A stretch of DNA of 64,000 nt. Source: Vibrio coralliilyticus. GTDB taxonomy: Bacteria; Pseudomonadota; Gammaproteobacteria; Enterobacterales; Vibrionaceae. The DNA is taken from positions 1,488,001 through 1,552,000 of the forward strand of contig NZ_CP024627.1 in assembly GCF_024449095.1 (NCBI RefSeq). The letters are read 5' to 3'. The notes below the pieces were generated by a model. That model ran no database searches. It had not been told where the DNA came from and worked only from the letters and a program-made list of their open reading frames with translations. Made by a program: the position numbers and the translations under genes. Shown here piece after piece: positions 12,153 to 43,477 of this stretch (positions within the stretch are counted from its first letter, which is position 1; every line of letters begins with the position of its first letter).

Positions 12153-13679
12153 TTATTGCTCTATTTTGACTGGTTCTGGCTTGAACCTTTTAAATAAACC
12201 AATAAGGATAGGGCTGCTTAAAACCATTATTGCTAGTACTGTAAATGCCATTGTAATTGGCCTTTCCCAAAGGAAGCTAAGCTCTCCATCGCTTATCATT
12301 AATGCTCGGCGAAGGTTTTCCTCCATTAATCCTCCGAGAATGAACCCGAGGAGAAGGGGGGCGAGTGGGAAGTTAGCCAGTCTCAGTGCTATCGCACCTA
12401 TGGCAATCAACAACATGATAAAGACGTCCATAGTGTTGAATGACACTAGGTAAACACCAGTGATAGAGAAGAACAGAATCATCGGTAACAGCACTGTCCT
12501 AGGAACTGCTAACAGCTTGGAAATGTAAGGAATCAGTGGCAAGTTGAGGATAACCAAAACAATGTTGCCGAAATACATGGAGATGATGACTGACCAGAAG
12601 ACGTCAGGATGTTCGACAAACAGACGTGGGCCAGGTTGGATGCCATAAGCAATCAGTGCGCCTAACATGATGGCTGTTGTACCTGAACCCGGAATACCCA
12701 AAGTTAAAAGTGGTACAAAAGAGCCACTTGATGCCGCGTTGTTTGCTGACTCTGGAGCAACTAACCCGCGGATGCTGCCTTTACCAAATTCTTCTTTTTT
12801 ATCTTTAGGTGCTAGGTTACGTTCCATACCATAGCTCAGGAAGGCTGCGATAGTTGCACCAGCGCCTGGCAACACGCCAGTAAAGAAACCCAAAATGGAA
12901 GAACGGATCGAAACAGGCGCGACTTCTTTGACTTCCTCTTTGGTGACTTTCATGCTGCCAATGTCACTCATTTTGCTTTGTTCTTCGTTGCGAGTGTCTT
13001 TTTCTGGCTTAAGGATGCCCATTAAGGTCTCCCCTAATGCAAAAGTCGCCATCGCTAACAGCAGGAAGCTGAATCCATCCATTAAGTCTGTCAGTCCAAA
13101 TGTGAAGCGCTCAACACCCACGCCTTTGTCGATACCTACCGTGGACAGCATCAGGCCTAGAATGGTCATCATCCAAGCTTTGATTACCTGACCTTTACCA
13201 GCGAAGGCAGCAACTGCTGATAGGCCCAATAGCATCAGTGCGAAGTAGTCAGAAGACTGGAAGCTAAGTGACACACTTGCCAGAGCAGGAGCTGCTACGA
13301 GCAGCATAATCGCGGATAGGGTACCACCCGTGAATGACGAGTAGGCAGCTAATGCTAGTGCTTTACCAGCTTGACCTTTCTGCGCCATTGGGTAGCCATC
13401 AAAAGCGGTCACAACGGTAGAAGAACAGCCCGGAGCGTTGATTAGAATTGAGGAGGTTGAGCCACCAAATACCGCACCGTAATACACACCTGCCATTAAG
13501 ATTAGGCCTGATGAAGGATCTAATCCATACGTAATGGGGATCATCAGAGCGATAGCTGAAATGGGGCCAAGGCCTGGAAGCATACCGATGAAGGTACCAA
13601 CGAAACATCCGACGATCACCATCATGATGTTCATCGGCATAACTGCGGTCGAAAGACCTTGTAAGATTCCATCTAACAT
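12153..13679 (-). CDS. tctA: tripartite tricarboxylate transporter large permease TctA
   Basis: The 508-residue protein has about 12 membrane helices and the TctA family signatures: GTFIGMLPGLGPISAIALMI near the N-terminus, then YYGAVFGGSTSSILINAPG, and the second-half repeat GFFTGVLPGAGATIAAFLSY. TctA works with TctB and the periplasmic binder TctC to import citrate or other carboxylates using an ion gradient. The substrate here is not fixed by sequence. The gene is last in the tctC-tctB-tctA operon and is followed by a good terminator. Confidence 0.95.
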   Translation of the reverse strand: MLDGILQGLSTAVMPMNIMMVIVGCFVGTFIGMLPGLGPISAIALMIPITYGLDPSSGLILMAGVYYGAVFGGSTSSILINAPGCSSTVVTAFDGYPMAQKGQAGKALALAAYSSFTGGTLSAIMLLVAAPALASVSLSFQSSDYFALMLLGLSAVAAFAGKGQVIKAWMMTILGLMLSTVGIDKGVGVERFTFGLTDLMDGFSFLLLAMATFALGETLMGILKPEKDTRNEEQSKMSDIGSMKVTKEEVKEVAPVSIRSSILGFFTGVLPGAGATIAAFLSYGMERNLAPKDKKEEFGKGSIRGLVAPESANNAASSGSFVPLLTLGIPGSGTTAIMLGALIAYGIQPGPRLFVEHPDVFWSVIISMYFGNIVLVILNLPLIPYISKLLAVPRTVLLPMILFFSITGVYLVSFNTMDVFIMLLIAIGAIALRLANFPLAPLLLGFILGGLMEENLRRALMISDGELSFLWERPITMAFTVLAIMVLSSPILIGLFKRFKPEPVKIEQ

Positions 13680-13696
13680 TTGTTATTCCTTACTGT

Positions 13697-14215
13697 TTAC
13701 GACCACATAGTGAAGATGACGCCCGGTTCCAGATAAATATCCAGTCCCTGAGTGAGCAGCAGATAAAATGCGATGACAAAAGGGAAGGAGGCTCCGAACA
13801 GGACCTTTTTTCGTCGTTCACCCAGTAGGTAGAAACCTGCGAGCAGGAATAGTCCCGTTGCGAGCACAAATCCAATGTAAGTCAGCCCTAAACCATAAAA
13901 TGCCATTAACGCTAAAAAAGCGATCAGCAGTTTCCAGTTAAAATCCATTACCGCGCCACTTTGCTTATCCGCTTGGCCTGTCACAAGTAACATCAGAGAA
14001 AGACCGATACCGATAAAGGTCAGAAGTGTGGGTAAGGTGCGAGCCGTGAAGGGTTCATATTCGTCACCGGGAAAAAGAGGGATTTGTGATGTTTGATAAC
14101 CATAACAAAGGCATACGATAAGAAAGATCATGGCACCGACGCGATCGCGACAAAGCAAATTCTCTTTTGAGAAAAACTGACCTTTGTTGAAAGAATTCGT
14201 TGGCAAGTCCGACAT
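13697..14215 (-). CDS. tctB: tripartite tricarboxylate transporter small subunit TctB
   Basis: About 172 residues with four hydrophobic helices, matching the size and topology of TctB (MIFLIVCLCYGYQTSQIPLF, then paired helices in the second half). I place the start at the ATG at 14215 (MSDLPTNSF) because GGAG lies six bases upstream. A frame from 14233 would add six residues and has no clear ribosome site. It lies between tctC and tctA, 17 bases from tctA. Confidence 0.88.
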   Translation of the reverse strand: MSDLPTNSFNKGQFFSKENLLCRDRVGAMIFLIVCLCYGYQTSQIPLFPGDEYEPFTARTLPTLLTFIGIGLSLMLLVTGQADKQSGAVMDFNWKLLIAFLALMAFYGLGLTYIGFVLATGLFLLAGFYLLGERRKKVLFGASFPFVIAFYLLLTQGLDIYLEPGVIFTMWS

Positions 14216-14384
14216 ATCCAACTCCATTTGCATTCACATTGAGGGAAGAAAAAAGCCGTACAAGAGGGATTAATGAGCATGTATCACTAACCAATAAGCC
14301 ATTTGCTGCTAGTCAAAGAGGCTTAGCTGTTTATTTCTAAACAGAGGAGATTGTGTCGTTATCTCGGGTACGGCAAAAAGGAAA

Positions 14385-14408
14385 GAGGGCAAGTGCAAGT
14401 TTGCCCTC
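14385..14408 (-). terminator. hairpin between tctC and tctB, likely partial terminator
   Basis: GAGGGCAA (14385-14392) pairs with TTGCCCTC (14401-14408) around an 8-base loop. On the minus strand it is followed by a T-rich stretch. Placed right after tctC within an otherwise continuous operon, it would lower transcription of the membrane subunits relative to the abundant binding protein. Confidence 0.65.
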
Positions 14409-14415
14409 GACAGGA

Positions 14416-15387
14416 TTACTTAAGGAAACCCAGCTCGCGCATCAAGTCGCCCATTTGCTTTTCTTGATCTTCAAGGAAAGCGTAAAAATCTTTATCTGCC
14501 TTATAGTTATCGATCCAGCCATTGCGATCTCGAACGACCTGCCACTCGTCGGTGTTATACATTTTCTGCAGCGCGGTGTTCCATTCATCGAGTTTTTCTT
14601 GGCTGGTGCCAGGGGCAGCGAAGAATCCACGCCAGTTAGCAAAGACAGTTTCGTTTCCGTATTCCGTTAGAGTTGGAATTTCTGGTGCAGCATCTAGGCG
14701 TTTAGGTGCTGTGACCGCTAGGATCTTAACTTGCCCAGATTTCGACATCTCCAGTACTTCACCTAGGCCGGTGGAAAGCAGTTGTGTTTCGCCTGAAAGT
14801 AGCGCAGCCATTGCTTTACCGCCTGCATCGTAAGCGATGTAGCGCACTTTACGTGCATCGAAACCTTCACCCTTGAACGCTGCCGCTACAACTAGATGGT
14901 CCATACTGCCACGAGCTGAGCCGCCGGCAATTTTGACTTTGCGAGGGTTAGATTCAAAGTCTTTAACTACGTCTTCCCAAGTGTTGTACTTGGAATCGAC
15001 AGAAGTCACGATTGCACCATAGTCTGCAATGGTGGCTGCCACCGGTGTCAGGTCACGGAATGACTGAGGGAAAATGCCTGTCAGGGAGCGCACAACGATT
15101 GGAGTAGAGTTCACCATCAAGGTATCTTCTTGGCGCTGAGCGGTTTCGATCAGGTGAGCAATGGCTTTACCGCCACCACCGCCGGATAGGTTTTGGAATG
15201 AGACGTTATCGACGATATCTGACTTAACGAGAACATCACCTGTTCCACGAGCCGTCATATCCCAACCACCGCCAGCACCGCCAGGGATTAAGAAGTGTAT
15301 TTTTTCAAGATCAGCTGCAAAAGTGTTGAAAGAAAAAGACGCAGCGATGATTGAAGCTGCCAGAGTCGGCTTGAGTACCTTAAACAT
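14416..15387 (-). CDS. tctC: tripartite tricarboxylate transporter solute-binding protein TctC
   Basis: The 323-residue protein has a signal peptide ending near FNTFAADLE and a mature start KIHFLIPGGAGGGWDMTARG. This is the typical substrate-binding loop of the Bug/TctC family. A second conserved loop is NLSGGGGGKAIAHL, and YGAIVTSVDSKYNTWEDVV matches the central domain. It captures a carboxylate in the periplasm for TctBA. The two-component genes tctDE that often accompany such operons are not in the window. The 209 bases upstream (15388-15596) hold its promoter. Confidence 0.95.
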   Translation of the reverse strand: MFKVLKPTLAASIIAASFSFNTFAADLEKIHFLIPGGAGGGWDMTARGTGDVLVKSDIVDNVSFQNLSGGGGGKAIAHLIETAQRQEDTLMVNSTPIVVRSLTGIFPQSFRDLTPVAATIADYGAIVTSVDSKYNTWEDVVKDFESNPRKVKIAGGSARGSMDHLVVAAAFKGEGFDARKVRYIAYDAGGKAMAALLSGETQLLSTGLGEVLEMSKSGQVKILAVTAPKRLDAAPEIPTLTEYGNETVFANWRGFFAAPGTSQEKLDEWNTALQKMYNTDEWQVVRDRNGWIDNYKADKDFYAFLEDQEKQMGDLMRELGFLK

Positions 15388-22295: not shown

Positions 22296-22778
22296 TTAAA
22301 ATAACTTCCACCAGGGAGAATCTGGCGTAATAACTTCTAGCTTGGCCTTGTCACCTGAAATACTGAGCTGCAAATACTCGTCCGAGGTTTTTGGCAACAT
22401 AGATACTGACTTAGGCTCACTTTGCTGGTAATCGATAAATTCGACCAACACTGCAACGTATTGTGTTTGATTATTAATATCTAACGTTATCTTTTGTTCA
22501 CTACCGGGAATAACAATCGGTAGTATTTGTTTCGAGACTAAATTGGCGCTGAGCAGTTGCACATCATTACTGTATAGGTCAATAAAAGGCTGCTGCTTAA
22601 ACATCTGTGCATCAGTCAATTGATATAATCTAACCACAACGGGGTTCGACTCATTGGAATCCGACGGGTTGGCCGATTTATCTGACTTAATTGCTAAAGA
22701 GTATTGAGTTACAACAGGCGCAGGATCTGACGAACAACCGATCAGAAACAGGGCCAAAACAACACACCACTTGGCCAT
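22296..22778 (-). CDS. tssJ: T6SS outer-membrane lipoprotein TssJ
   Basis: The 160-residue protein has a lipoprotein signal with lipobox LIGC (Cys15). The mature part is a small beta sandwich with VVVRLYQLTDAQMFKQQPF, the conserved TssJ (VasD/Lip) segment, and ends PWWKLF. It ties TssM to the outer membrane. Its start codon overlaps the stop of the FHA gene, so translation is coupled. Confidence 0.93.
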   Translation of the reverse strand: MAKWCVVLALFLIGCSSDPAPVVTQYSLAIKSDKSANPSDSNESNPVVVRLYQLTDAQMFKQQPFIDLYSNDVQLLSANLVSKQILPIVIPGSEQKITLDINNQTQYVAVLVEFIDYQQSEPKSVSMLPKTSDEYLQLSISGDKAKLEVITPDSPWWKLF

Positions 22779-23716
22779 TAACTTTCCTCTCTTTGTTTCT
22801 GCATGTTCTCCATAAAAAGAGCTTTGAATTGGCGTCTGAAATCTCCATTCTCTTGTCTGTGCTGGAAGTGTTTGCGATAAATTTTCCAGTATTTCTTCTC
22901 TTTATTGGTAAACATTCCGCCAGAGATATAATCGCTAAACTGTCTCTCAAGCTGAGTCGGTGCGAATTCGTTCAAGAACTGATCAACCGTTTTTTCGAGG
23001 GCATCAAACAGCGCTTCATGATGCAAGGTCGGGTTTCTCAGGTATTTATTGTTCTTCTCTGTCATAGAAAGAAGTTTTTCTAGCGATGCTTCTATGGGTA
23101 CACCTGCTTTCGAATGTACAGGTAAAAACTCAGGTTCTTCTGGGTTTTGGGCCACTTTCGAGTTGATATCATCAACTTCGACGTGTTGAGCAATCAGATC
23201 TTCATCTAAGTCTTCAAAAGGGTCCGCAGCAAATGGATCATCACTTAAGATGTTATCTTCAGAAAAATGGTTGTTCTTTTTACTTTCCACGGGAGAGGGT
23301 TCTTCCTCTAAAAAGTCAATGTCATCATTATCTAGTTGAAGCGAAAAAGGTTCAGAAAACAGCTCGTCATCTTTCTTCTCATCTTGAGGTTGCTCGGAGG
23401 TGATGAGAGTGGAGACCAGCATGGTATAATTCTCGACCTTAAGAATATCGCCATCGCTGAGCGGGTATTCTTTTCCTTTCGCCATTGATTTATCGTTCAG
23501 TACGGCACTGTTTTGGCCTGTACTTTTTACACTGTACCCATTATCGGTAAGGCGAATGCTGCCATGTACTCTTGAAATGCGTTTGCTTTGGTCGGGTAAA
23601 GAGATATCACAAGAAGTCGCCCGTCCAAATTCACCACCTGTTCTTGGTAAGTACACGACACGAGAAGTGACTACCTCATCAGAGGGTACTGAAATCAAAT
23701 GAATGCTAATTGTCAC
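22778..23716 (-). CDS. T6SS-associated FHA-domain protein
   Basis: The 312-residue protein has an N-terminal FHA domain (about 20-100) with the phosphothreonine-binding residues in place: GR at 31-32, SRVH at 48-51 and QNSA near 68-71. A long acidic linker follows. The C-terminal 100 residues (from ASLEKLLSM to the end) form a helical domain like that of TagH/Fha proteins from T6SS loci. Such proteins recognise phosphorylated partners made by a T6SS kinase. That fits the kinase gene at the end of this operon. The gene begins four bases after the small solute-binding protein gene. Confidence 0.88.
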   Translation of the reverse strand: MTISIHLISVPSDEVVTSRVVYLPRTGGEFGRATSCDISLPDQSKRISRVHGSIRLTDNGYSVKSTGQNSAVLNDKSMAKGKEYPLSDGDILKVENYTMLVSTLITSEQPQDEKKDDELFSEPFSLQLDNDDIDFLEEEPSPVESKKNNHFSEDNILSDDPFAADPFEDLDEDLIAQHVEVDDINSKVAQNPEEPEFLPVHSKAGVPIEASLEKLLSMTEKNNKYLRNPTLHHEALFDALEKTVDQFLNEFAPTQLERQFSDYISGGMFTNKEKKYWKIYRKHFQHRQENGDFRRQFKALFMENMQKQREES

Positions 23717-23719
23717 TTG

Positions 23720-24442
23720 TTACCCCTCACACTTTAAAATCGCTGCATTAAATGCAGATAGGAAGCCTGAGTACTTGTTAAGGAATCGATTTGAAAAGTA
23801 GACGCCCATTGGTTTGGTGTCCATCAATTGTGACTGAAAGAAATCCTCAGGTAGAGAAGCTTCCTTTAGTTCACCCCGAAAGACTTTTTCATCCTCCAAT
23901 GCAACATCAATTTCCCTTTGTTTTAAAAGCTTTAGTAATACTTTAGCATCTCGGGGCTGTTTGACTACGTTGAATCCGTTGCGCTTTAGCCAAAACCACT
24001 TGTTGGACCCAAATTTAGCAGAAAACTTAAGGTTTACTTTGGTAAGTTCATCCATTTTGGGCTCTACACCGGGCCCAAAGTACCAGCGTAACTCTTGTTG
24101 AGCGATCGGTGCTGATAGTGTTGCGTATTCATCCCGTTCAGCCGTTTGAGTTGCAACAAAAAAGCCATGCTGTGTACCGCTTTGAACTCGCAACTGTGCA
24201 TCAGACCAAATCGTCATTGTGATCTGGTAAGGCTGACCCATATGGCTTAGGGCGCACTTTACTTTATCCAGAGCGATTCCCTGCATCTGGCCATGTTTAT
24301 AGTCTTGATAGGGCGGCCAATCCTGAGTGGTTAAATGCAGCCGCGCAGGGCCAAATGTTGTTTGTGCGGATGCATTGGCTACAGTGATAAGGCCAAGTAG
24401 AATCGCTAGGCAGAAAGTAAAATACGGCATCATTCTGACCAT
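23720..24442 (-). CDS. periplasmic solute-binding protein (SBP_bac_3-like) in the T6SS operon
   Basis: The 240-residue protein has a signal peptide (FCLAILLGLITVANASA) and a type II periplasmic-binding fold of the amino-acid-binding class. LHLTTQDWPPYQ is the usual first strand and loop, followed by MQGIALDKVKCAL and later WFWLKRNGFNVVKQPRDAKVLLKLL and DVALEDEKVF. It is shorter than transporter-linked versions and has no ABC permease or ATPase beside it. Its 5' end overlaps the stop of the TrpX-like gene by 13 bases, so the two are coupled. A ligand-sensing rather than uptake role is inferred. Confidence 0.8.
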   Translation of the reverse strand: MVRMMPYFTFCLAILLGLITVANASAQTTFGPARLHLTTQDWPPYQDYKHGQMQGIALDKVKCALSHMGQPYQITMTIWSDAQLRVQSGTQHGFFVATQTAERDEYATLSAPIAQQELRWYFGPGVEPKMDELTKVNLKFSAKFGSNKWFWLKRNGFNVVKQPRDAKVLLKLLKQREIDVALEDEKVFRGELKEASLPEDFFQSQLMDTKPMGVYFSNRFLNKYSGFLSAFNAAILKCEG

Positions 24443-25431
24443 TCATTTCCTCCAATAAGCTCGGAAATCTTTAATATTGAAACTGGTGGATAATAATCGA
24501 GGGCACGAGCTGCGCCGACATTGACTATGTATGAGTACTGAGTCAGAGGCTCAATAGGTACATCACTAGGTTCGTATCTTCCACTCAGTATTTGCTCTGC
24601 TTTGTGGCCAGCAAACTGGCCGACATTGTAATAACGGCTCACAATGCCAAAAAGAGCGTCATGTTTTCTTATTGGTGATTCGGTTGCGGAAAACGTCGCA
24701 ATACCTTGTCGATGTAAGCTGTCTACAATATCTTTGCCCTGACTGATAATGTATGAATCTGGTGGAAGGTAGGCGAGTTGAACACCATCTTCCAACATAA
24801 GGTCAACGACCTTTCCAACTGAGCTGGAATCAGGTTTGTCGTTTATTGTTCTGAGAGGATACAAATACACATCCTTTTTGAATTTTGCTGAAAGTGTTTG
24901 TATGCTGCGCGCTGTTACTACGGCATTGTTTTCTAAAGGGTTGAAAATAATGCCGATAGTTTCGATACCGTTTAGCTGACTGATGGCGTTGAACTGTACA
25001 TTATGTGGAACAATATGACTGACACCAGTAAAATTTCGTCCATTTTTTTCTAAAGAGTTCACTATCTTTGAACCCACGGGATCAGTGACGATACTGAACA
25101 CAACGGGGGTATCACTTTCTTCTCGGAAAAGGCTTGGGTTGTGTTCTGTGCCTAAAAGGTTAAGAGTGATTGTGGTGCCAAATGTATAGATTAAATCTGG
25201 GTTTAAATTATCTATGCTTTCTAAGTGCTGCCTTAAGGTTGCTTTGTCACGTTTTGCATCTAGCACTGTATAGCGTATGTTCATTTTTTCGGATAAGTAA
25301 TCCATAAACCCACGCTCAGCATCGGTGATGCCGCGCCATAACACCATTACGACATGTTTTTCGTTTCCTGAATCTGCCGCTGGCACAGCAAACGGCAGAA
25401 GAATTAGCAAACACAAAAGCAAAGCCTTCAT
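24430..25431 (-). CDS. TrpX-like (ABC_sub_bind) periplasmic solute-binding protein in the T6SS operon
   Basis: The 333-residue protein has a signal peptide ending in AVPAADS and a two-lobe type I binding fold of the TrpX/ABC_sub_bind family: HVVMVLWRGITDAERGF, PDLIYTFGTTITLNLLG, VFSIVTDPVGSKIV and TGVSHIVPHNVQFNAI. Family members bind aromatic amino acids or related small molecules for ABC importers. Here there is no importer next door. The start overlaps the stop of the sensor-MFS gene by four bases, and the 3' end overlaps the next binding-protein gene. Confidence 0.85.
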   Translation of the reverse strand: MKALLLCLLILLPFAVPAADSGNEKHVVMVLWRGITDAERGFMDYLSEKMNIRYTVLDAKRDKATLRQHLESIDNLNPDLIYTFGTTITLNLLGTEHNPSLFREESDTPVVFSIVTDPVGSKIVNSLEKNGRNFTGVSHIVPHNVQFNAISQLNGIETIGIIFNPLENNAVVTARSIQTLSAKFKKDVYLYPLRTINDKPDSSSVGKVVDLMLEDGVQLAYLPPDSYIISQGKDIVDSLHRQGIATFSATESPIRKHDALFGIVSRYYNVGQFAGHKAEQILSGRYEPSDVPIEPLTQYSYIVNVGAARALDYYPPVSILKISELIGGNEWSE

Positions 25432-27977
25432 TTTACCACCTCCACTTGGTTTCTGTCTCTGCGGACAAACAAGCTATAGAAGCTCAGCAGAACAATAGAA
25501 CTGATTAGTAATGCAACACCAAACATCATAATGGTGCTTTGGAAACCTAAAACACTTAAAGCAAGCCCTGCGACTAATGGGCCAGCGATATTGCCAATTC
25601 GTTCGGTCAGTCGGAATATACCAATCGTCTTGCCTTTATCCAGCCCAGAACCTGACAATAGCTCTATTATGAGTGGAACTTGCGGAGAAACACATAGGCC
25701 GTGTGCGATACCCACGAGTATAACTATCATGAGTAAGCCAAATGTCCCCGGGAGCATCATAATATTGATCAATGCGGCGGCAGACAAGATACCACCGGCA
25801 AAGATAAAGGCAATTTTGTTATTCCACTTGTCAACTAGCGACGCAGCGAGAGGTGAGATGATGATAATTGCAAGACCATATGTCATCATTACACGACCCG
25901 AAACAGCGCTACTTTCTCCTAGCGACTGCAAATAAACCGGGCAGATGTAATATAAGAAGCCAGTTAAAACCACTTTTGCAGGAATGGCACTAAAGAAGGT
26001 AATGAGTGCAAAATACTTATTACTCAACAGTATTTTAAAGTCAGTTAACTGTACAGGCTTGCTTTCACTATTGGTTTCTCCACGCTCAAAGAAGATGATG
26101 ACTAGCATTACCCCAACGATCGCTAAAGCGGCGGCAAGCATAAATGTCATCGAGTAGCCAAGTTTGTCCGCTAGAACGCCACCAATTGCGGCCCCACAAA
26201 GTGAACCAGAGAAAAAGGCGGATAAGAAGGTCGACATACCTTTAGTTCTGTTTTGCGTATTTGTTGTATCAGTGACATAGCCTTGAGCCGAAATGAATAC
26301 GATACCGTAACCAACAGCGGTTACTGCTCTAGCAACAAGCAGCAACTCAAGGTTGGGACTTAGGGCGGTTGCTACTAGCCCCACAGCAGTTAGAAGACCA
26401 CCACCGATGAGAGACTTTCTTCGGCCGACTTTGTCAGACCAGTAGCCAGCAAAGGGAAGAGATAGGGCCCAACACAACATAAAGAGTGAAATAGGTAAAC
26501 TGGTGACTAAGTCTGTTGGGATCCAATTCTGCGTGCTTGGCAAGCTGGCTACAAAGTTAGGGAAAAAGGCTAGGGAGGCGGCCTCTGAGAATATTAAAAT
26601 AAATAGAGGAAGTCTAACAAAACGGTAGTCCTGAATGTTTTTCTCAGGGAGCGCTTTGCTGTCAAAAGTACTCTTTATGAGGGTATTTAGCTTACCGATA
26701 AGAGAGCCAAGCTCGTCATTGGATTGAACCTTAACAAGATATGGGACTTGTTTATGTTCGCCCATCGCAATCAACTGTTTAATCTGCCTCCATGGTTTGA
26801 TGATCATGAAGTGACAGATAAATAAAATGATTTCAATAACGAACAATCCAGAGGCAACAAGGACTGTGATCATATCCATAATACTATCTTTGATCATCTG
26901 TGGGATGATATTAGTATCAGCCATCATTTGAAGCTTAATCATTCCAGTAGTATCTATCGGAATAGATAACTCGCTTGCTTCGACATAATCTGGGAAAAAG
27001 TCGGGATGTTGATAGAGAGCCGTTTCGTTACGTTCCAAACGAATAGAAAGCAATTCAGGGTGATGTTCAATATAAGATGAAAATTCTTCTTCTAGACCCA
27101 TTAATCGTTCGAGAGGTACTCCTTCATTAATGATGCGTCCAATCATATGGGAGAGTGTATCGCCGATAAGGTTAGACTTTTGTTCTAGCTGATTTTCATA
27201 AACAACGGAGAACTTATTCAATGATTGATAGGAACTTCCTAAGTTTGAAGCTACTGTTAAAACAATCGCGAGAAGAATGATAAGAAGTGGAAAATACTTT
27301 GCACGGACTTTGTTCCACTTAGAACTAGTTCGGTCAGCGATAATATGGCTTTTAACTGAGGTTAGCAGTTGTTTTTCGGTCATCCCTTCAGTATTTATTG
27401 CACTGGTCGCTGATTTGACTTTTTTCAGCAGAAAATCAAGCAAAGAGTTTAGTGCCAAATATCCAATGACCGCAGCGACTAAAACCCATAAAAGGGTGTC
27501 CATGACTTGTTGAGAAAGCAAAGTTTGTTTGATTTGCTCAAGATAAAGTGGCGAGTAGTAAAGTCGCAGCTCCCCTTCTTTTACATTGAATGTATTTACA
27601 ATATCGGTAGTCAGCAGCCTGTCAGTGTCGAATTTAGCTACTCCTGTAGTAAACAGGACGTCGTCAGAACTGTTTACGACTTGAATTTTACTGATACCAT
27701 CAACAAGCTCTAGGCGTCTTTCGATGAGAGATTGGATATTCGAGATAGAAGAAAGGGGGAGCCCCAAACTCATTGCCTGTCGAATGTCATTATCTGTCTC
27801 GTCCAGTACCACCTGATAAGTTGAGTCACTTGTCTGGGTTAGACGTTTATCGAAGTTGAGGTAGTTTAATGTTGTATTTAACCCGTTAGAAAACAGCAAG
27901 ACAGCGACAATGGCCAAAATAAGCTTGGCTCGCAGTGAGATAAATCGTTGAGCTTTAACCATGTATCCAGTATCCAT
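25428..27977 (-). CDS. dual periplasmic-sensor / HAMP / MFS transporter fusion
   Basis: The 849-residue protein lies between clpV and the two solute-binding genes. Helix 1 (18-37) and helix 2 (159-184) bracket a first periplasmic domain. Helix 3 (229-246) and helix 4 (367-391) bracket a second one. A HAMP-like stretch follows at about 392-438 (KPWRQIKQLIAMG, then NDELGSLIGKLNTLI). From about 453 a complete 12-helix MFS transporter begins, with motif A GYWSDKVGRRKS at 511-522. Sensor and HAMP parts normally control kinases, cyclases or chemoreceptors, so joining them to a transporter suggests ligand-gated transport or a transporter-derived signalling output. An alternative start lies at 27962. 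No family name is known to me for the whole protein. Confidence 0.85.
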   Translation of the reverse strand: MDTGYMVKAQRFISLRAKLILAIVAVLLFSNGLNTTLNYLNFDKRLTQTSDSTYQVVLDETDNDIRQAMSLGLPLSSISNIQSLIERRLELVDGISKIQVVNSSDDVLFTTGVAKFDTDRLLTTDIVNTFNVKEGELRLYYSPLYLEQIKQTLLSQQVMDTLLWVLVAAVIGYLALNSLLDFLLKKVKSATSAINTEGMTEKQLLTSVKSHIIADRTSSKWNKVRAKYFPLLIILLAIVLTVASNLGSSYQSLNKFSVVYENQLEQKSNLIGDTLSHMIGRIINEGVPLERLMGLEEEFSSYIEHHPELLSIRLERNETALYQHPDFFPDYVEASELSIPIDTTGMIKLQMMADTNIIPQMIKDSIMDMITVLVASGLFVIEIILFICHFMIIKPWRQIKQLIAMGEHKQVPYLVKVQSNDELGSLIGKLNTLIKSTFDSKALPEKNIQDYRFVRLPLFILIFSEAASLAFFPNFVASLPSTQNWIPTDLVTSLPISLFMLCWALSLPFAGYWSDKVGRRKSLIGGGLLTAVGLVATALSPNLELLLVARAVTAVGYGIVFISAQGYVTDTTNTQNRTKGMSTFLSAFFSGSLCGAAIGGVLADKLGYSMTFMLAAALAIVGVMLVIIFFERGETNSESKPVQLTDFKILLSNKYFALITFFSAIPAKVVLTGFLYYICPVYLQSLGESSAVSGRVMMTYGLAIIIISPLAASLVDKWNNKIAFIFAGGILSAAALINIMMLPGTFGLLMIVILVGIAHGLCVSPQVPLIIELLSGSGLDKGKTIGIFRLTERIGNIAGPLVAGLALSVLGFQSTIMMFGVALLISSIVLLSFYSLFVRRDRNQVEVVK

Positions 27978-27998: not shown

Positions 27999-30611
27999 TT
28001 ACTGAATAGTAAGTTCGAATCCTTCCTCATTGTTAGCTGCAGTAACAGACACTTGTGTGATTGGCTGTTGTTGGCTTAACCTGCTAATACACTCTTCAGC
28101 TAGCTTAGGCATCAAAGAACGGTTAATGATTTGCTCAACAGCTCGACCACCAGTGGTTGGATCTGTATTTTTACCAACAACGTATTCAACGAAGCCTTCA
28201 TCCCAAGTGAACGATGCTTGATACTGTTCGGCAAGCTTCTTCTTGATCCTATTTAGAGATATCTCAGTGATTTTAGCTAACTCTTCGTCGTTTAGTGGGT
28301 AGTAAGGAACAATCGTTGTACGGCCCAAAAACGCTGGCTTAAAATAGTGCTGAAGATCTGGGCGTATCGCTTCAAGGAGTTTTTCATTACTTAGGCGTTC
28401 ACTATTATCTGCACAAGCATCACAAATAGCCTGATCCGCTGCGTTTGACGTCATAATAATGATAGTGTTTTTAAAATCGACAGTTCGACCTTCGCTATCT
28501 TTGATATGCCCTTTATCAAAAATCTGATAGAAGAGATCATGCACGCCAGGGTGAGCTTTCTCCATTTCATCTAACAGTAAGACCGAGTAGGGGTTACGGC
28601 GAATGGCTTCTGTTAATACTCCACCTTCACCAAAGCCTACATAGCCGGCGGGAGAACCAAGTAACATAGAAATTTTATGCTCTTCCTTAAACTCGGTCAT
28701 ATTGATGATAGTAAGGTCGTTGCTACCACCATATAGCTGCTCTGCAAGTGCCATAGCGGTTTCTGTTTTACCTACACCACTAGGACCGCACATTAGAAAT
28801 ACCCCAATTGGTTTTCGGCTATCGGTGAGGCCAGCACGAGAAATGCGGATCGCTTTGGCAAGTTCCTGTTTTGCTACATCTTGGCCGATGACTCGATTGT
28901 CTAGCTCTTCTTCTAAGGATAAAAGACGGGCGATTTCATCACTCATCATGTTCCCCACAGGAATTCCTGTCCAGTTAGCAATGACCTGAGCAATGGTGTT
29001 GTCATCAACCATTGCGTTGACCAAAGGCTCTTCACCTTGTAATTCACTAAGCTGATCAATGAGTGCGTTGAGTTTGTCTTGTTTTGCTTTATCGACGGAT
29101 TCCCCGGTTTGCTCATCGCCGATTTCTTGCTGAAGCTCTTTGATTTGCTCAACCAAGTCGATTTCTTGCTTCCAGCGGGTTTGATAATCTTCCAGCTTTT
29201 TCTCGTTATCCGCAATTTCGGTAGCAAGTTCGGCAATTTCATCTTCCGCAATACCAAATAGCGCATTTTCTTTTTCTAATGCGGTTTTTTCATTTTTTTG
29301 GTAACGAATAGTTTGTTCAAGTGCTTCAATAACTTCGGGTTTTGCTCCTTGAGTCAGAGCGATACGAGCACTTGCTGTATCGAGTAAGCTAATGGCCTTG
29401 TCAGGAAGTTGGCGACTTGGTAGATAGCGAATGGATAAGTGAACGGCTGCATCTATGGCTGATTCTGCAATAAAGGCACCGTGGTGTTTTTGCAGCGAAG
29501 CCGCTATTCCACGAAGCATCTGCTTGGCATCTTCAGCGTTAGGCTCTTCGATCGATACAACTTGGAAGCGTCGAGTTAACGCAGGGTCTTTTTCAAAATA
29601 CTTCTTATATTCTGCCCAAGTCGTTGCTGCAATGGTCTTGAATTCGCCACGCGCTAGAGCTGGTTTCAATAAGTTTGCAGCATCATTTTGACCAGCAGCG
29701 CCGCCAGCCCCAATTAAGGTGTGAGCTTCATCAATGAAAACAATAATAGGTTTTTCACTATTTTTGACTTCATTGATGACGTCCTTGAGTCTGTTTTCGA
29801 ATTCGCCTTTTACACTAGCCCCAGCCTGAAGTAGACCAAGATCCAAAGAGTGGATTTGTACACCTTGCAGTGCCCCTGGAACTTCATTCTCTGCAATACG
29901 TAGTGCTAAACCTTCGACAACAGCGGTCTTACCAACCCCAGGCTCACCTACCATAATTGGGTTGTTCTGACGCTTTCTGCACAGTATGTCTATCGCTTTA
30001 CGTACTTCGGAGTTGCGACCAGAAATTGGGTCAATATTACCATCTAAGGCTTGCTGAGTTAGGTTTGTGGTGTACTTACTTAACGCATCGTTACCGACAG
30101 GTGCACCACTAGTACCATCGGTAGCTGCAGCACTGGTTTTAGAACGTGCTACCGCTGTTTTATTGATTAAGCCTTGCAAGGATTCCAGTGATACATTTTG
30201 CAAGCTTTCTAGCTGCAATGTATTCATTCCAAGCACGTTTTGTTGCAACATGGCCTGAATCAAATGAAGGCTGATCACTTCGCCATGACCATAGTTTACA
30301 GAGGCAATCATCCAGGCATCTTTTACGATTTCGGTAAGAGCTTGACTGAGAGTCGGTTGGCCTTCATTTCCTTTAGGAAAACGTGCAATTCTTGAGGACA
30401 ACTCATTCACTAAATTGTCCTGCGAGAGGTTCTGGGACTGAATGAGACTATTCAAATGTTTATCTTGCTGTGAGAGTAGCTGTAATAGCCAGTGCTCAGT
30501 CTCAATAGAAGGCACATTTTGGTTCATCGCAGCCCCAGCTGAAACTTCAAGTGCTTGTTTCAGCTCTGGTGACAACTTAGCGACTAGATTTGTTAGCGTA
30601 ACTTGCGTCAT
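27999..30611 (-). CDS. tssH: T6SS sheath-recycling ATPase TssH (ClpV)
   Basis: About 870 residues from the ATG at 30611, which has GGA seven bases upstream (a frame to 30632 adds seven residues). The N-domain carries two Clp_N repeats. AAA1 has Walker A GEPGVGKTAVVEG and Walker B VFIDEAH. A coiled-coil middle domain rich in Glu and Lys follows. AAA2 has GPSGVGKTETAM and LLLDEMEKAHP. ClpV disassembles the contracted TssBC sheath so subunits can be reused. The T6SS setting and family length separate it from ClpB. It lies 21 bases upstream of the sensor-MFS gene. Confidence 0.96.
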   Translation of the reverse strand: MTQVTLTNLVAKLSPELKQALEVSAGAAMNQNVPSIETEHWLLQLLSQQDKHLNSLIQSQNLSQDNLVNELSSRIARFPKGNEGQPTLSQALTEIVKDAWMIASVNYGHGEVISLHLIQAMLQQNVLGMNTLQLESLQNVSLESLQGLINKTAVARSKTSAAATDGTSGAPVGNDALSKYTTNLTQQALDGNIDPISGRNSEVRKAIDILCRKRQNNPIMVGEPGVGKTAVVEGLALRIAENEVPGALQGVQIHSLDLGLLQAGASVKGEFENRLKDVINEVKNSEKPIIVFIDEAHTLIGAGGAAGQNDAANLLKPALARGEFKTIAATTWAEYKKYFEKDPALTRRFQVVSIEEPNAEDAKQMLRGIAASLQKHHGAFIAESAIDAAVHLSIRYLPSRQLPDKAISLLDTASARIALTQGAKPEVIEALEQTIRYQKNEKTALEKENALFGIAEDEIAELATEIADNEKKLEDYQTRWKQEIDLVEQIKELQQEIGDEQTGESVDKAKQDKLNALIDQLSELQGEEPLVNAMVDDNTIAQVIANWTGIPVGNMMSDEIARLLSLEEELDNRVIGQDVAKQELAKAIRISRAGLTDSRKPIGVFLMCGPSGVGKTETAMALAEQLYGGSNDLTIINMTEFKEEHKISMLLGSPAGYVGFGEGGVLTEAIRRNPYSVLLLDEMEKAHPGVHDLFYQIFDKGHIKDSEGRTVDFKNTIIIMTSNAADQAICDACADNSERLSNEKLLEAIRPDLQHYFKPAFLGRTTIVPYYPLNDEELAKITEISLNRIKKKLAEQYQASFTWDEGFVEYVVGKNTDPTTGGRAVEQIINRSLMPKLAEECISRLSQQQPITQVSVTAANNEEGFELTIQ

Positions 30612-30684
30612 ACCGTTTTCCTTGTATCTCAAGAGGCATCAATACGTCTTTAATACCTAGCTCTTATTTGATTCTGAAGTCTCA

Positions 30685-33386: not shown

Positions 33387-33804
33387 AGCTATCCTCCGTC
33401 ATTACAGTTGTCAGATCATTGAGTGAAATCTTAGAATCGAATACCAGATCTTGTTCCCCTTTAGACGTTTTAGCCTTGGCTATAATATTGAAAACTAATG
33501 CGTTTTCATTTTCTTTGCGTTCAAGTAACTCAACCATAATCTGAGTAAGTCGAGGCTCGAAATGTCGAATATAGCTTTCTAACCGTAATGCGAGTTGAGT
33601 TTGGTCCAAGCTGGCACTTAGAAGTTGTACATCTTCGATTCCAAAACGCAAATTAGAGCGTTGAAGCTCTGTGAATCGGTCATCAATATCGATTAGAGAG
33701 GACTCAGACTCCAGAAGCTTAGTTAGGTGGTACTTGATATCATCAATCTCTTCGCTTTGGCTTGAGCTCTTAGGGTCAATAAATGTTTTCCAAAAGCCCA
33801 TCAC
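33379..33804 (-). CDS. tssE: T6SS baseplate protein TssE (gp25-like)
   Basis: The 141-residue protein matches phage T4 gp25-like TssE: an IDDIKYHLTKLLES opening, YGIEDV-type FGIEDVQLLSASLD in the middle, and YIRHFEPRLTQIMVELL near the end. It helps nucleate the contractile sheath on the baseplate. Its start overlaps the stop of the second TssC-like gene. A second Met one codon in may be the true start. Confidence 0.9.
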   Translation of the reverse strand: MMGFWKTFIDPKSSSQSEEIDDIKYHLTKLLESESSLIDIDDRFTELQRSNLRFGIEDVQLLSASLDQTQLALRLESYIRHFEPRLTQIMVELLERKENENALVFNIIAKAKTSKGEQDLVFDSKISLNDLTTVMTEDSYD

Positions 33805-35195
33805 GCAGCCTCATCCAGCTCAGTGGTTAAAACAACTTCGCCTGTAAAGTGATCATATTGATACTGAGGGACAATTCTCAGTGTACAGACAAAACTGCCG
33901 GGTTGATTATCCGATTCTGAAACACTTATTTTGGCAAAACTGAGTGGGTATTTAGCCAGCGTCTCTTCGTTTGCGTAGGTGACATTACTGGCAAACTTTT
34001 CAACCCACTGGGTTAAAAATAACTCACATTCCGCAGCAGTATTAAAGCTACCAAGCATTTCGCGAACTTGAACTTTTAAATAGTGGGCTACGCGGCAAGA
34101 CATTAGGCAGGTTTGAATCTGAGTTAATATCTTTTCGTTGTCTGAAGTACCACTTTGCCAAATGGAGTTATTTCCATTGAAAAAGAATTTGTTGCTAAGT
34201 GGACTCTTAGTGAGAGGGATAAACCCATGTTGTGCATAAAAGGTAGATATTTGGCCAAAGAGCACAACACTTGTTTGAGGCTCTCGTAGAAACAGACTGT
34301 TCTGCTGTTCAATGTTTACAACGGCACCCTGAGATTTATCGTTCCAGCGTGACTTGAGAAAGCCAAACCAGTTTACGCGATGGTACTCTCGCATTATGGT
34401 TGCTGCAAACGCAAAGTTCGCTCTACCCCACAGACCAGTTCCTACCTCGTTGTAGATAAAACCTGCCTTAGCGTTGCGATAGCAATGTCGCATACGTATC
34501 GAAGGCATCACAAAGCCAACAAAACGTGAGCTTTGCTTACTACGGAGTGATTGCCAAGCTTGGTAGTCTGGTCCTGTGAGAATTTTATCTATTCGATTGA
34601 TGTCTGAAAGCCAATCGGCACCGGAATCGACAAAAAATTGCTCATCGGGTGAAAAGATCATTGGGCAAAGTGTTGACTCCCCAAGTTTACTGAGAAGCTC
34701 TACAGTGAAAAGATCATCATAGTCGGCATCAAAATCCATATCGATTGCAATTGGGTGTGTGTAAACAATGCAACCAAATGGATGACCGCCTAGAGTATTT
34801 AATTCTTGATTACCGATTTTGTTGAACAGATTGGAAGCCTTGATATTGTAGGCTTGGTTAACGTCCGCAGACACTTCACTCCAGTCCATATCAAGGAGTT
34901 TTAGTTTAGTGCGTTGTTTGTTTACAGGTAATGTGGCGAGGCCTTGTAAACCGAGCCAACTGCTATGAAGGTGCTCAAAGTCTCCATCATGAAGGATTTC
35001 ATCGAGCTGTTTTGACAGCGCATCATCTAAAAAAGCGACAAGTCGAGAAATGAAATTAACTAGTGACGGTTTATTTTCTAAGGCGGCTGGATTAACTTCA
35101 GACAGCAAAAAGAGCGCGTCTCTTAGAAAGTCGCTTTTTTTGCTGTCTAAGGTGGTAAACCTTTGTTGCCAACCCGCATCAAAATTCAGTTTCAT
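33801..35195 (-). CDS. second TssC-like (sheath large-subunit family) protein
   Basis: The 464-residue protein is clearly related to the TssC next to it. Its LSKQLDEILHDGDFEHLHSSWLGLQGL lines up with the TssC segment LSKQLSEVMQQKELQKLEGSWRGLQKL, and GRANFAFAATIMREYHRVNWFG and SCRVAHYLKVQVREMLGSF match later blocks. It lacks about 50 residues at the N-terminus where TssC holds TssB. Its C-terminus also differs. It is not a pseudogene. It lies between tssC and tssE, so it may act at the sheath-baseplate junction or form an alternative sheath part. This is inference. Confidence 0.85.
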   Translation of the reverse strand: MKLNFDAGWQQRFTTLDSKKSDFLRDALFLLSEVNPAALENKPSLVNFISRLVAFLDDALSKQLDEILHDGDFEHLHSSWLGLQGLATLPVNKQRTKLKLLDMDWSEVSADVNQAYNIKASNLFNKIGNQELNTLGGHPFGCIVYTHPIAIDMDFDADYDDLFTVELLSKLGESTLCPMIFSPDEQFFVDSGADWLSDINRIDKILTGPDYQAWQSLRSKQSSRFVGFVMPSIRMRHCYRNAKAGFIYNEVGTGLWGRANFAFAATIMREYHRVNWFGFLKSRWNDKSQGAVVNIEQQNSLFLREPQTSVVLFGQISTFYAQHGFIPLTKSPLSNKFFFNGNNSIWQSGTSDNEKILTQIQTCLMSCRVAHYLKVQVREMLGSFNTAAECELFLTQWVEKFASNVTYANEETLAKYPLSFAKISVSESDNQPGSFVCTLRIVPQYQYDHFTGEVVLTTELDEAA

Positions 35196-42670: not shown

Positions 42671-43477
42671 TTATCGACTGTCCACAACGAGTAGTTTTGC
42701 ATTTTGATAGGAGAAGTGCATACCTTCCAACTCATTAGGGTGAGCTAGAATTGAGTCAACCGAGGGGAGTACTACAAAGAAGATGAGTGGATCTGGGTGA
42801 AGGTGCACCCAGCGCAAGCTTGACTCTGACTTTTTGTAGACCTTCATATTTACAGTGAGTACAAGGTTGTCTTCTGCAAGCTGGCTATACTTAAATCGAC
42901 CTAATTCGTGAACCGCCCCCCATAGAGAGGTTAGGGGGCGTTCATATGTGCTCTTCAGGAACAACTCTAACTGTAAGGTATCCTCGTTGTCATGCAATGT
43001 GGTGCTCAACCTTTGAGTCAGCCTCAAGCCATCTTCAAATGGGAGATAATGAAGATTATTGTCGACAATTTGAGAGGAAAACGGACAAAGCTGAACAGAA
43101 TCTGAAGGCTGCTGGCTTGCATACAGCTCACAGGTGAACTGCTTAATGATGAATTCCAGTCCGTCATGGAAACGTGAGTTCTGAATATCGCTAAGGAGAA
43201 TAGTGGAACTATTAAGTATTTCGGCGAAGATTTTGTGCGCATTATTGTTGACGGCAGCGCGGTCAGCGACCTGAACATAATGGTTGGATTTAATTGCGGT
43301 TTTAAGGATGTTGTTTGATTCTATTACCCTAATGTCTTCATCGGAATAGACTGCATCTCTTAGAGTTGGATAGTAAGGCTCTCTTTCTGGTGCCGAAAAG
43401 AATGAGCAGGCCGTCAATCCAAGGCCTAGCACTATACCTATAGATATCTTCGTGAGTGAATTCAGCATCCTTGCCAT
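42671..43477 (-). CDS. lipoprotein of unknown function at the head of the T6SS locus
   Basis: The 268-residue protein has a lipoprotein signal with lipobox GLTAC (Cys24). The mature part has SFFSAPEREPYYPTLRDAVYSDEDIR and later VHELGRFKYSQLAEDNLVLTVNMKVYKK and WVHLHPDPLIFFVVLP. I recognise no domain. It is not TssJ, which is encoded at 22296. It is in the same direction as vgrG, 191 bases upstream, and could be an accessory envelope protein or an immunity-like protein. Both are guesses. A start three codons in is also possible. Confidence 0.65.
   Translation of the reverse strand: MARMLNSLTKISIGIVLGLGLTACSFFSAPEREPYYPTLRDAVYSDEDIRVIESNNILKTAIKSNHYVQVADRAAVNNNAHKIFAEILNSSTILLSDIQNSRFHDGLEFIIKQFTCELYASQQPSDSVQLCPFSSQIVDNNLHYLPFEDGLRLTQRLSTTLHDNEDTLQLELFLKSTYERPLTSLWGAVHELGRFKYSQLAEDNLVLTVNMKVYKKSESSLRWVHLHPDPLIFFVVLPSVDSILAHPNELEGMHFSYQNAKLLVVDSR

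What the first reader, a model, noticed from the sequence alone, without database searches (positions are those of the whole stretch)
23720..27977. A three-gene sensory/transport module buried inside a T6SS operon
Between clpV and the FHA gene lie an 849-residue sensor-MFS fusion, a TrpX-like binding protein and an SBP_bac_3-like binding protein, with overlaps of 4 and 13 bases and a 3-base gap to fha. None is a known T6SS core part. The two binding proteins have no ABC importer. The tight coupling to fha and the shared operon with a kinase suggest a ligand-sensing input for T6SS. This is inference: the sequence shows the genes and their coupling, not the signal. I do not know a described system of this form.
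Basis: partly seen in the sequence, partly recalled or inferred. Interest (0 to 1): 0.8.

Follow-up and report, generated by a model that had tools for sequence, protein, structure and literature searches.

The report
Receptor-transporter genes inside T6SS operon
Between two core genes of a Vibrio protein-injection machine lie three genes for small-molecule binding and transport that many marine bacteria keep in or next to the same machine, so they probably tie it to a nutrient-like chemical signal; relatives of the genes have been noted before, but their signal is unknown.

Summary
Three minus-strand genes lie between clpV and fha of a T6SS operon: an 849-aa sensor-MFS (sMFS), a TrpX-like ABC_sub_bind protein (TrpXl) and a family-3 binding protein (SBP3). 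They are not one fixed trio.

SBP3 is tied to fha: it directly precedes fha in 80 of 80 named relatives kept (of 102 found; the query was built from T6SS copies).

sMFS+TrpXl is a movable pair: between clpV and SBP3 in 50 of those 80, 22 of these with a Ddl-like ATP-grasp gene; elsewhere mostly beside vgrG; six genomes with SBP3 have no sMFS at E 1e-40. Of 12 non-T6SS sMFS loci viewed, 9 show a TrpX-like neighbour and 5 a ligase or epimerase gene. Trees reject one clade of the T6SS copies, so at least two recruitments are likely.

Best reading: a periplasmic amino-acid or dipeptide receptor and transporter input to this T6SS. Ligand and output are inferred. It is partly known: V. anguillarum VtsA-D, reported to act on hcp expression, is very probably the same kind, and a Vibrio sp. 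J383 table prints this gene order. New here are anatomy, distribution and origin.

The parts
25428..27977 (-). sMFS: 849-aa inner-membrane protein with two periplasmic sensor domains, a HAMP-like linker and a C-terminal MFS transporter domain
   Evidence: Pfam MFS_1; AlphaFold model of mean pLDDT 83.2, pTM 0.77; HAMP-like match
27396..27935 (-). sensor domain 1 of sMFS (residues 15-194): long helix, short helix, four strands, long exit helix (Cache-like layout, by eye)
   Evidence: model secondary structure; hydropathy peaks near 12-37 and 153-180
26763..27320 (-). sensor domain 2 of sMFS (residues 220-405), same layout
   Evidence: model secondary structure; hydropathy peaks near 229-247 and 370-388
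26667..26804 (-). HAMP-like linker of sMFS (residues 392-437)
   Evidence: hhalign to residues 277-322 of L298:3955-5754, E 0.0017, probability 15%; HAMP there is a Pfam hit at 273-322
25434..26627 (-). MFS transporter domain of sMFS (residues 451-848); E465, R550, H759, R789, E792 and R793 invariant in 46 sequences
24430..25431 (-). TrpXl: TrpX-like (ABC_sub_bind) binding protein with an N-terminal hydrophobic, signal-like segment
23720..24442 (-). SBP3: family-3 (amino-acid type) binding protein with an N-terminal hydrophobic, signal-like segment; constant neighbour of fha
22778..23716 (-). fha/tagH: T6SS FHA-domain protein, gene next to SBP3
27999..30632 (-). clpV/tssH, upstream neighbour
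   Evidence: TIGR03345, 1152.9 bits
15597..16343 (-). protein kinase-like gene at the end of the T6SS operon, candidate partner of FHA
   Evidence: Pfam Pkinase E 1.7e-13

Best explanation
This is a periplasmic receptor and transport input of a marine-type, FHA-containing T6SS. SBP3 is the dedicated receptor, probably for an amino acid or a small amino-acid-like molecule. TrpXl and sMFS are a movable receptor-transporter pair: ligand-loaded TrpXl would dock on the tandem periplasmic sensor domains of sMFS, the HAMP-like linker would pass the change to the MFS domain and gate it, and the outcome would reach T6SS through the FHA protein and the operon's kinase or through the transported metabolite. 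The pair is akin to stand-alone modules of a carboxylate-amine ligase or epimerase, sMFS and TrpXl, which points to D-amino acids, D-Ala-D-Ala-type dipeptides or other amides as ligand class. Shown here: gene anatomy, co-occurrence, positions, conservation, kinship to stand-alone modules. Inferred: ligand class, docking, HAMP gating and the route to T6SS.
For: SBP3 directly before fha in 80 of 80 named loci (79 separate genes, median gap 3 bp, and 1 fused ORF; the tool kept 80 of 102) and in 50 of 56 SBP3 places (E 1e-40 or better) among 148 genus genomes; 50 of 51 distinct FHA genes listed there have it. Median identity to the window over 28 clusters: SBP3 75.4%, FHA 59.7%, TssL 68.5%, TssM 68.0%, TssK 80.9%, ClpV 83.5%. 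sMFS in 43 and SBP3 in 48 of 148 genus genomes, both in 42 (not corrected for phylogeny). The pair or sMFS beside vgrG or the kinase gene in clusters that lack it at fha. Non-T6SS copies beside ligase or epimerase genes in 5 of 12 loci and beside TrpX-like genes in 9 of 12. Trees and AU test. SBP3 profile matches Gln/Arg-binding family-3 SBPs (6h30 E 1.2e-7, 3tql E 1.2e-5). sMFS architecture. VtsA-D reported to act on hcp expression.
Against: No ligand or interaction was tested. The SBP3 query alignment A2 was built from T6SS loci only, so the 80 of 80 describes that subfamily. Lower-scoring SBP3 relatives lie away from fha, two of them in this genome (G000 C2:815539 and C2:396524). The acidic residue that pairs with the amino group in this family (recalled) differs between SBP3 types, and R103 is H in L116. 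The HAMP match is weak and Pfam did not call it. The sensor fold could not be compared with solved folds. Six genomes with SBP3-fha have no sMFS at E 1e-40, so the pair is dispensable. The window cluster lacks the ligase gene; 7 of 12 non-T6SS loci show none either. The partner of SBP3 is unknown. TssK and ClpV are better conserved than SBP3.
Confidence: 0.5

Rival explanations
1. SBP3 is a structural or assembly accessory of the membrane complex that has lost ligand binding, and sMFS-TrpXl is a separate metabolic transporter kept in the island.
For: SBP3 is as tied to fha as a core gene and is kept without sMFS in six genomes. Its Pfam score lies just under the family cut-off. Many invariant aromatic residues.
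Against: The profile still matches amino-acid SBPs over about 155 positions; R103 is nearly invariant. The pair's repeated T6SS linkage is not explained.
Confidence: 0.25
2. The genes export or import a metabolite made in the cell (for example a D-amino-acid dipeptide or other amide) that protects the cell or remodels its wall during T6SS action; sensing is only feedback control of the MFS.
For: Ligase-sMFS-TrpXl modules exist without T6SS. K193, E237, R310, D312, E324 and N326 (numbering of L298; ATP-grasp roles recalled) are invariant in the 10 Ddl and Ddl-like proteins aligned. Charged MFS residues are invariant.
Against: The window has no ligase gene in the cluster. Two periplasmic receptors suggest capture of external ligands. 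Position beside fha and an operon with a kinase suggest control.
Confidence: 0.2
3. Passenger insertion: transporter genes that landed in the operon by chance.
For: No sMFS in some genomes with SBP3-fha, and sMFS without T6SS.
Against: 29 of 34 orthologous clusters have the genes at this place; the pair recurs at other places in T6SS clusters; a T6SS-free sister module and the AU test speak for repeated recruitment.
Confidence: 0.05

Closest known systems
VtsA-D of Vibrio anguillarum (Weber et al. 2009, not held; described in PMC8861277, passages seen)
   Same: Accessory genes in a T6SS operon called transporter proteins and said to act in stress response, transport function and hcp expression, with no role in virulence. 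In V. anguillarum L207 the eight genes between clpV and tssM are Ddl-like, sMFS, TrpXl, SBP3, FHA, TssJ, TssK, TssL, which fits vtsA-H; the mapping is my inference.
   Different: The window lacks the Ddl-like gene; its sMFS is about 20% identical to that type and has 849 against 731 residues. A 2025 paper (PMC11790442, passages) uses vtsA1-vtsN1 for core genes of V. anguillarum T6SS, so the names are not used alike.
Vibrio sp. J383 chromosome 1 T6SS (PMC10385127, Table 5, passages seen)
   Same: Same gene order tssH, MFS transporter, ABC transporter protein, Transporter protein, FHA.
   Different: Listed with putative functions only; the passages I saw give no analysis of these genes.
V. fluvialis/V. 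furnissii VflT6SS1 flank (PMC5371669, passages seen)
   Same: An ABC-type periplasmic component and an MFS transporter at the left junction.
   Different: Described by the authors as flanking genes.
TagQRST-PpkA-Fha1 pathway of Pseudomonas aeruginosa H1-T6SS (recalled)
   Same: Envelope proteins encoded with T6SS feed a kinase and FHA protein.
   Different: No ABC transporter or phosphatase family was found in the 21 operon ORFs scanned; the parts are other families.
LuxP-LuxQ and TorT-TorS type periplasmic-protein sensors (recalled)
   Same: Periplasmic binding protein next to a membrane sensor with HAMP-like linker.
   Different: Output domain is a transporter, not a kinase; docking untested.
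Stand-alone ligase-sMFS-TrpXl modules (L289, L297, L298, L300)
   Same: Same sMFS and a TrpX-like neighbour.
   Different: Carry a Ddl, Ddl-like or GCS2 ligase; no SBP3 or T6SS gene labelled in the regions read.

Membership tests
VtsA-D type T6SS accessory module | Homologous MFS, ABC_sub_bind and family-3 SBP genes directly before fha | tested here: met
   Same order in window and L207; homology by alignments. That these are the Vts proteins is inferred.
VtsA-D type T6SS accessory module | VtsA (taken here as the ATP-grasp, Ddl-like gene) | tested here: not met
   No ORF fits between clpV and sMFS (21-base gap)
VtsA-D type T6SS accessory module | Effect on hcp expression or secretion | not testable with these tools
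   Stated for V. anguillarum in PMC8861277; not for these genes
MFS transporters | MFS domain above curated cut-off | tested here: met
   PF07690 181.7 bits vs 33.4; helices in 451-848 in model
TrpX tryptophan ABC transporter SBP (NF041285) | Score over the equivalog cut-off | tested here: not met
   101.4 bits vs 390
ABC_sub_bind family (PF04392) | Score over gathering cut-off | tested here: met
   94.6 vs 25.9 bits
ABC importer | Permease and ATPase encoded with the SBPs | tested here: not met
   None in the 21 of 22 operon ORFs scanned; rest of the genome not searched for a partner
SBP_bac_3 (PF00497) | Score over gathering cut-off | tested here: inconclusive
   24.2 vs 26.4 bits; profile A6 matches amino-acid SBPs in the PDB, E 1.2e-7
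HAMP-linked sensor proteins | HAMP domain between sensor and output | tested here: inconclusive
   hhalign E 0.0017, probability 15%; no Pfam HAMP hit at 0.01
TagQRST threonine phosphorylation pathway | TagQ, TagR, TagS, TagT and PppA genes in the T6SS cluster | tested here: not met
   No ABC transporter or phosphatase family in the 21 operon ORFs scanned; no dedicated Tag search, whole genome not searched

The most novel reading that the evidence does not exclude
A class of marine T6SSs carries its own chemical antenna. SBP3 and TrpXl read amino acids or cell-wall dipeptides set free by damaged neighbours or met in a host, and a sensor-gated MFS passes the reading to the FHA-kinase switch. 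It would stand in for the TagQRST damage sensor and would have been recruited at least twice from D-amino-acid or dipeptide ligase-transporter modules.
Probability: 0.2. Interest if true: 0.8.

Novelty: new variant of a known kind. Interest (0 to 1): 0.56.

Why it matters
What switches many T6SSs on is unknown; in their reply to reviewers, authors working on V. proteolyticus T6SS3 say that its external cues are still to be revealed (PMC9545535, passage). A receptor gene that travels with fha makes that question testable: purify it, find its ligand, remove it and read Hcp. The link to ligase-transporter modules names a ligand class to try first. The V. coralliilyticus copy (L141) may be its anti-eukaryotic T6SS2, since T6SS1 there resembles V. 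parahaemolyticus T6SS1 and no V. parahaemolyticus was among the 80 loci kept; this is a guess, not checked by locus tags.

Tried and rejected
Rejected: the trio as one unit (SBP3 is alone between clpV and fha in 27 of 80 loci; the pair also sits elsewhere). Rejected: passenger insertion (distribution). Rejected: TrpX as tryptophan importer by name (far under the equivalog cut-off, no ABC partners in the operon). Not used: plain counts of MFS hits (55 of 61 genomes match at E 0.001, most by ordinary MFS proteins; 1e-40 and 1e-60 were used later).

Led nowhere: PDB search by sequence for SBP3 and for the sensor region (best E 0.29); hhalign of the sensor region to a dCache kinase; Pfam for the 480-520-aa neighbours in L124, L293, L295, L296 and NCBIfam for L293, L295; paper searches for SBP_bac_3 with T6SS and HAMP with MFS. 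PMC8714846, PMC6986712, PMC9765294 and PMC4431377 gave nothing on these genes in the passages found; PMC3352281, PMC7825059, PMC6611333 and PMC10441901 cite Weber 2009 for V. anguillarum T6SS, stress and quorum sensing without naming vts genes. Ten paper searches were made.

Limits: my ORF filter hid TrpXl in L098, L099, L151 and L153 (one search shows it at 77-78% identity in the same genomes G112 and G091) and SBP3 in L212 and L217 (their distance to fha used an assumed end). In one search I merged two SBP3 pieces of G083 into one place. Fisher p 3e-29 ignores relatedness. Alignments A1 and A2 were built from loci found through the window genes. FHA next to the order-level SBP3 hits (36 of 295 genomes at 1e-20) and class-level hits (5 of 369 at 1e-10) was not checked. 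Trees have long branches; the AU test used 24 of the 42 rows, chosen by me (L124 and L135 among those left out), and one gain with losses is not excluded. Of the 27 SBP3-alone loci I offered 23 to (not L177, L178, L179, L184); L186 was not held.
Full report
What is there. The window lies in G000, contig 1. The named relatives nearest by SBP3 are V. neptunius, Vibrio sp. RE88 and V. coralliilyticus at 95% identity (records very near the window may be left out there). A T6SS operon runs on the minus strand from about 43.5 to 15.6 kb. I call them sMFS, TrpXl and SBP3. Family scans give MFS_1, ABC_sub_bind and a sub-threshold SBP_bac_3. TrpXl and SBP3 each have one N-terminal hydrophobic segment and no other, as expected for exported proteins.

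Anatomy of sMFS. The AlphaFold model (46 sequences, mean pLDDT 83.2, pTM 0.77) has two like units, each a long helix, a short helix, four strands and a long exit helix (residues 15-194 and 220-405), then a linker, then the MFS helices (451-848). The layout resembles single-Cache sensors; this is by eye, since the fold search did not run. The linker 392-437 aligns to a Pfam-called HAMP segment of a SpoIIE-type protein with E 0.0017 but probability 15%. E465, R550, H759, R789, E792 and R793 of the MFS part are invariant in 46 sequences, as expected of a working transporter.

Distribution in the genus. Among 148 genus genomes, 34 (window included) have an orthologous fha at E 2.8e-87 or better. 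Of these, 29 have sMFS, TrpXl and SBP3 between clpV and fha (sMFS broken in G011) and 5 (G030, G124, G134, G003, G080) have SBP3 alone there. SBP3 is found at E 1e-40 or better in 48 of 148 genomes, sMFS at 1e-60 or better in 43 of 148, both in 42. sMFS alone: G131, where no T6SS gene was labelled around it. SBP3 alone: G030, G080, G109, G124, G134, G155. Of 56 SBP3 places, 50 directly precede an FHA gene; the six others score lower (E 2.8e-59 or weaker). Of 51 distinct FHA genes listed down to E 1.5e-14, 50 have SBP3 before them; the exception is G028:C45.

Named relatives. A scan of one-per-species genomes, with patterns from the T6SS-linked alignment A2, gave 102 relatives of SBP3, of which the tool kept 80. 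In all 80, fha follows directly: 79 as a separate gene with median gap 3 bp (range -89 to 134; fha is split in L156; for L212 and L217 an SBP3 end was assumed), one (L204) as a fused ORF in a draft with other split genes. Between clpV and fha there are 28 sMFS-TrpXl-SBP3 (26 as labelled plus L151 and L153, whose TrpXl my filter hid but one search shows), 27 SBP3 alone, 22 Ddl-like-sMFS-TrpXl-SBP3 (six of them with one or two further genes before the Ddl-like one), 1 Ddl-like-SBP3 (L210) and 2 without clpV on the stretch (L156, L218). The hosts include Vibrio, Photobacterium, Grimontia, Enterovibrio, Moritella, Psychromonas, Marinomonas, Oceanospirillum, Marinobacterium and Pseudoalteromonas.

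Where the pair goes when it is not beside fha. Of the 27 SBP3-alone loci, 22 genomes were searched for sMFS (23 offered, one not held), with L210 and L218 besides: 24 searched, 18 with a match at E 1e-40. One search shows the regions: in 12 the sMFS genes (with a separate sensor gene of 260-290 residues, and TrpXl except in L330) lie beside vgrG (in L325 with one 81-codon ORF between), in some on the opposite strand; in L326 they lie near vgrG, in L323 next to the kinase gene. The V. furnissii copy and five other genus genomes show the same place before vgrG. So SBP3 is the constant part and the pair is movable.

Outside T6SS. Twelve sMFS loci without labelled T6SS genes were viewed (L124, L135, L289, L292-L300). 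Nine show a TrpX-like gene nearby (not L124, L293, L296). Five show a ligase or epimerase: L297 Ddl-like ATP-grasp, sMFS, TrpXl; L298 and L300 sMFS with a D-Ala-D-Ala ligase (L298: TIGR01205, 302.7 bits, cut-off 245.65; L300 88% identical) and TrpXl; L289 (Aureimonas plasmid) sMFS, GCS2 ligase, ABC substrate-binding protein and SpoIIE phosphatase; L299 a DapF-like protein (TIGR00652, 119.5 bits, cut-off 114.65), sMFS, two TrpX-like genes and a hybrid histidine kinase. Six (L124, L292-L296) carry a 476-519-residue gene without family hit where scanned, and L135 shows no ligase. Two annotated Azospirillum matches are shorter MFS proteins of about 500 residues with neither neighbour; the longer Azospirillum matches were not read.

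Origin. In trees of sMFS, L297 is the sister of the T6SS copies that have a Ddl-like gene (100/100; starred), while the window type and the vgrG type group together (93/89) away from them. The AU test rejects one clade of all T6SS copies (p 2e-91, 24 rows; long branches are present). The plainest reading is two recruitments; one gain with losses is not excluded. Ten Ddl and Ddl-like proteins keep the ATP-grasp residues (roles recalled).

Selection. Median identity of the window proteins to 28 orthologous clusters: SBP3 75.4%, FHA 59.7%, TssJ 62.7% (26 clusters), TssL 68.5%, TssM 68.0%, TssK 80.9%, ClpV 83.5%, sMFS 59.7%, TrpXl 62.2% (26). SBP3 is kept better than FHA, TssJ, TssL and TssM, less well than TssK and ClpV.

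Ligands. The SBP3 profile matches glutamine- and arginine-binding family-3 proteins (6h30 E 1.2e-7, 3tql E 1.2e-5, 2pvu ArtJ E 5.1e-4). R103, in the place of the arginine that holds the carboxylate in this family (recalled), is nearly invariant, while the acidic partner differs between types. TrpXl matches 6hni, 3lkv and 3lft. With the ligase and epimerase neighbours of some relatives, amino acids, D-amino acids or dipeptides are the first class to test. This is inference.

What was known. PMC8861277 (passages) says that A. [quoted passage not shown] anguillarum but not in virulence, citing Weber et al. 2009, which is not held. In V. anguillarum L207 exactly eight genes lie between clpV and tssM: Ddl-like, sMFS, TrpXl, SBP3, FHA, TssJ, TssK, TssL; I infer that these are vtsA-H. 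From memory, that paper calls VtsE-H T6SS signature proteins and VtsA-D not. Against an easy reading of the names, PMC11790442 (passages) uses vtsA1-vtsN1 for core genes. PMC10385127 Table 5 (passage) prints the window's order for Vibrio sp. J383. PMC5371669 (passage) notes an ABC periplasmic component and an MFS transporter at the edge of VflT6SS1. I saw no paper that treats the sensor-MFS architecture, the SBP3-fha linkage or the ligase modules in the listings and passages of ten full-text searches of an open-access library.

Verdict. Real, common in related clusters of its genus, partly described, with an unexplained and testable function. The strongest new facts are the fixed SBP3-fha linkage and the repeated tie between T6SS clusters and a sensor-transporter pair that elsewhere goes with ligases.

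Noticed in passing
window 33801-35195: A second sheath-large-subunit (VipB) gene follows tssC here and in related clusters read far enough; a tssC duplication is remarked on in PMC10385127.
   Followed up: partly
window 12153-15387: A tripartite tricarboxylate transporter set (only TctA confirmed by Pfam; TctB and TctC by position) lies downstream of the kinase gene; TctC relatives follow the kinase gene in other clusters such as L142, L146, L147, L157, L158 and L159.
   Followed up: no
L204:9974-11722: SBP3 and FHA form one open frame of 582 aa in an Enterovibrio coralii draft that also has split tssK and tssM; sequencing error or a real lost stop.
   Followed up: partly
L299:1290-11093: sMFS between a DapF-like gene, an unknown 530-aa gene, two TrpX-like genes and a dCache hybrid histidine kinase, no T6SS gene labelled nearby.
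   Followed up: partly
L292-L296 and L124: A conserved 476-519-aa family next to sMFS or its TrpX-like neighbour, without Pfam hit in the four members scanned; alignment A4 of six has 30 invariant columns.
   Followed up: partly
L203, L208, L214, L216: One or two unknown genes (about 320 and 385 aa) between clpV and the Ddl-like gene; no Pfam hit for L123:13838-14815 and L208:4093-5244.
   Followed up: partly
L210:8826-10684: V. proteolyticus cluster with the Ddl-like gene directly before SBP3 and no sMFS or TrpXl there; the only sMFS of that genome at E 1e-40 lies on another contig. Probably its T6SS3 by contig and locus numbering (inference).
   Followed up: partly
window 42671-43477: 268-aa ORF at the start of the T6SS operon without Pfam hit.
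   Followed up: no
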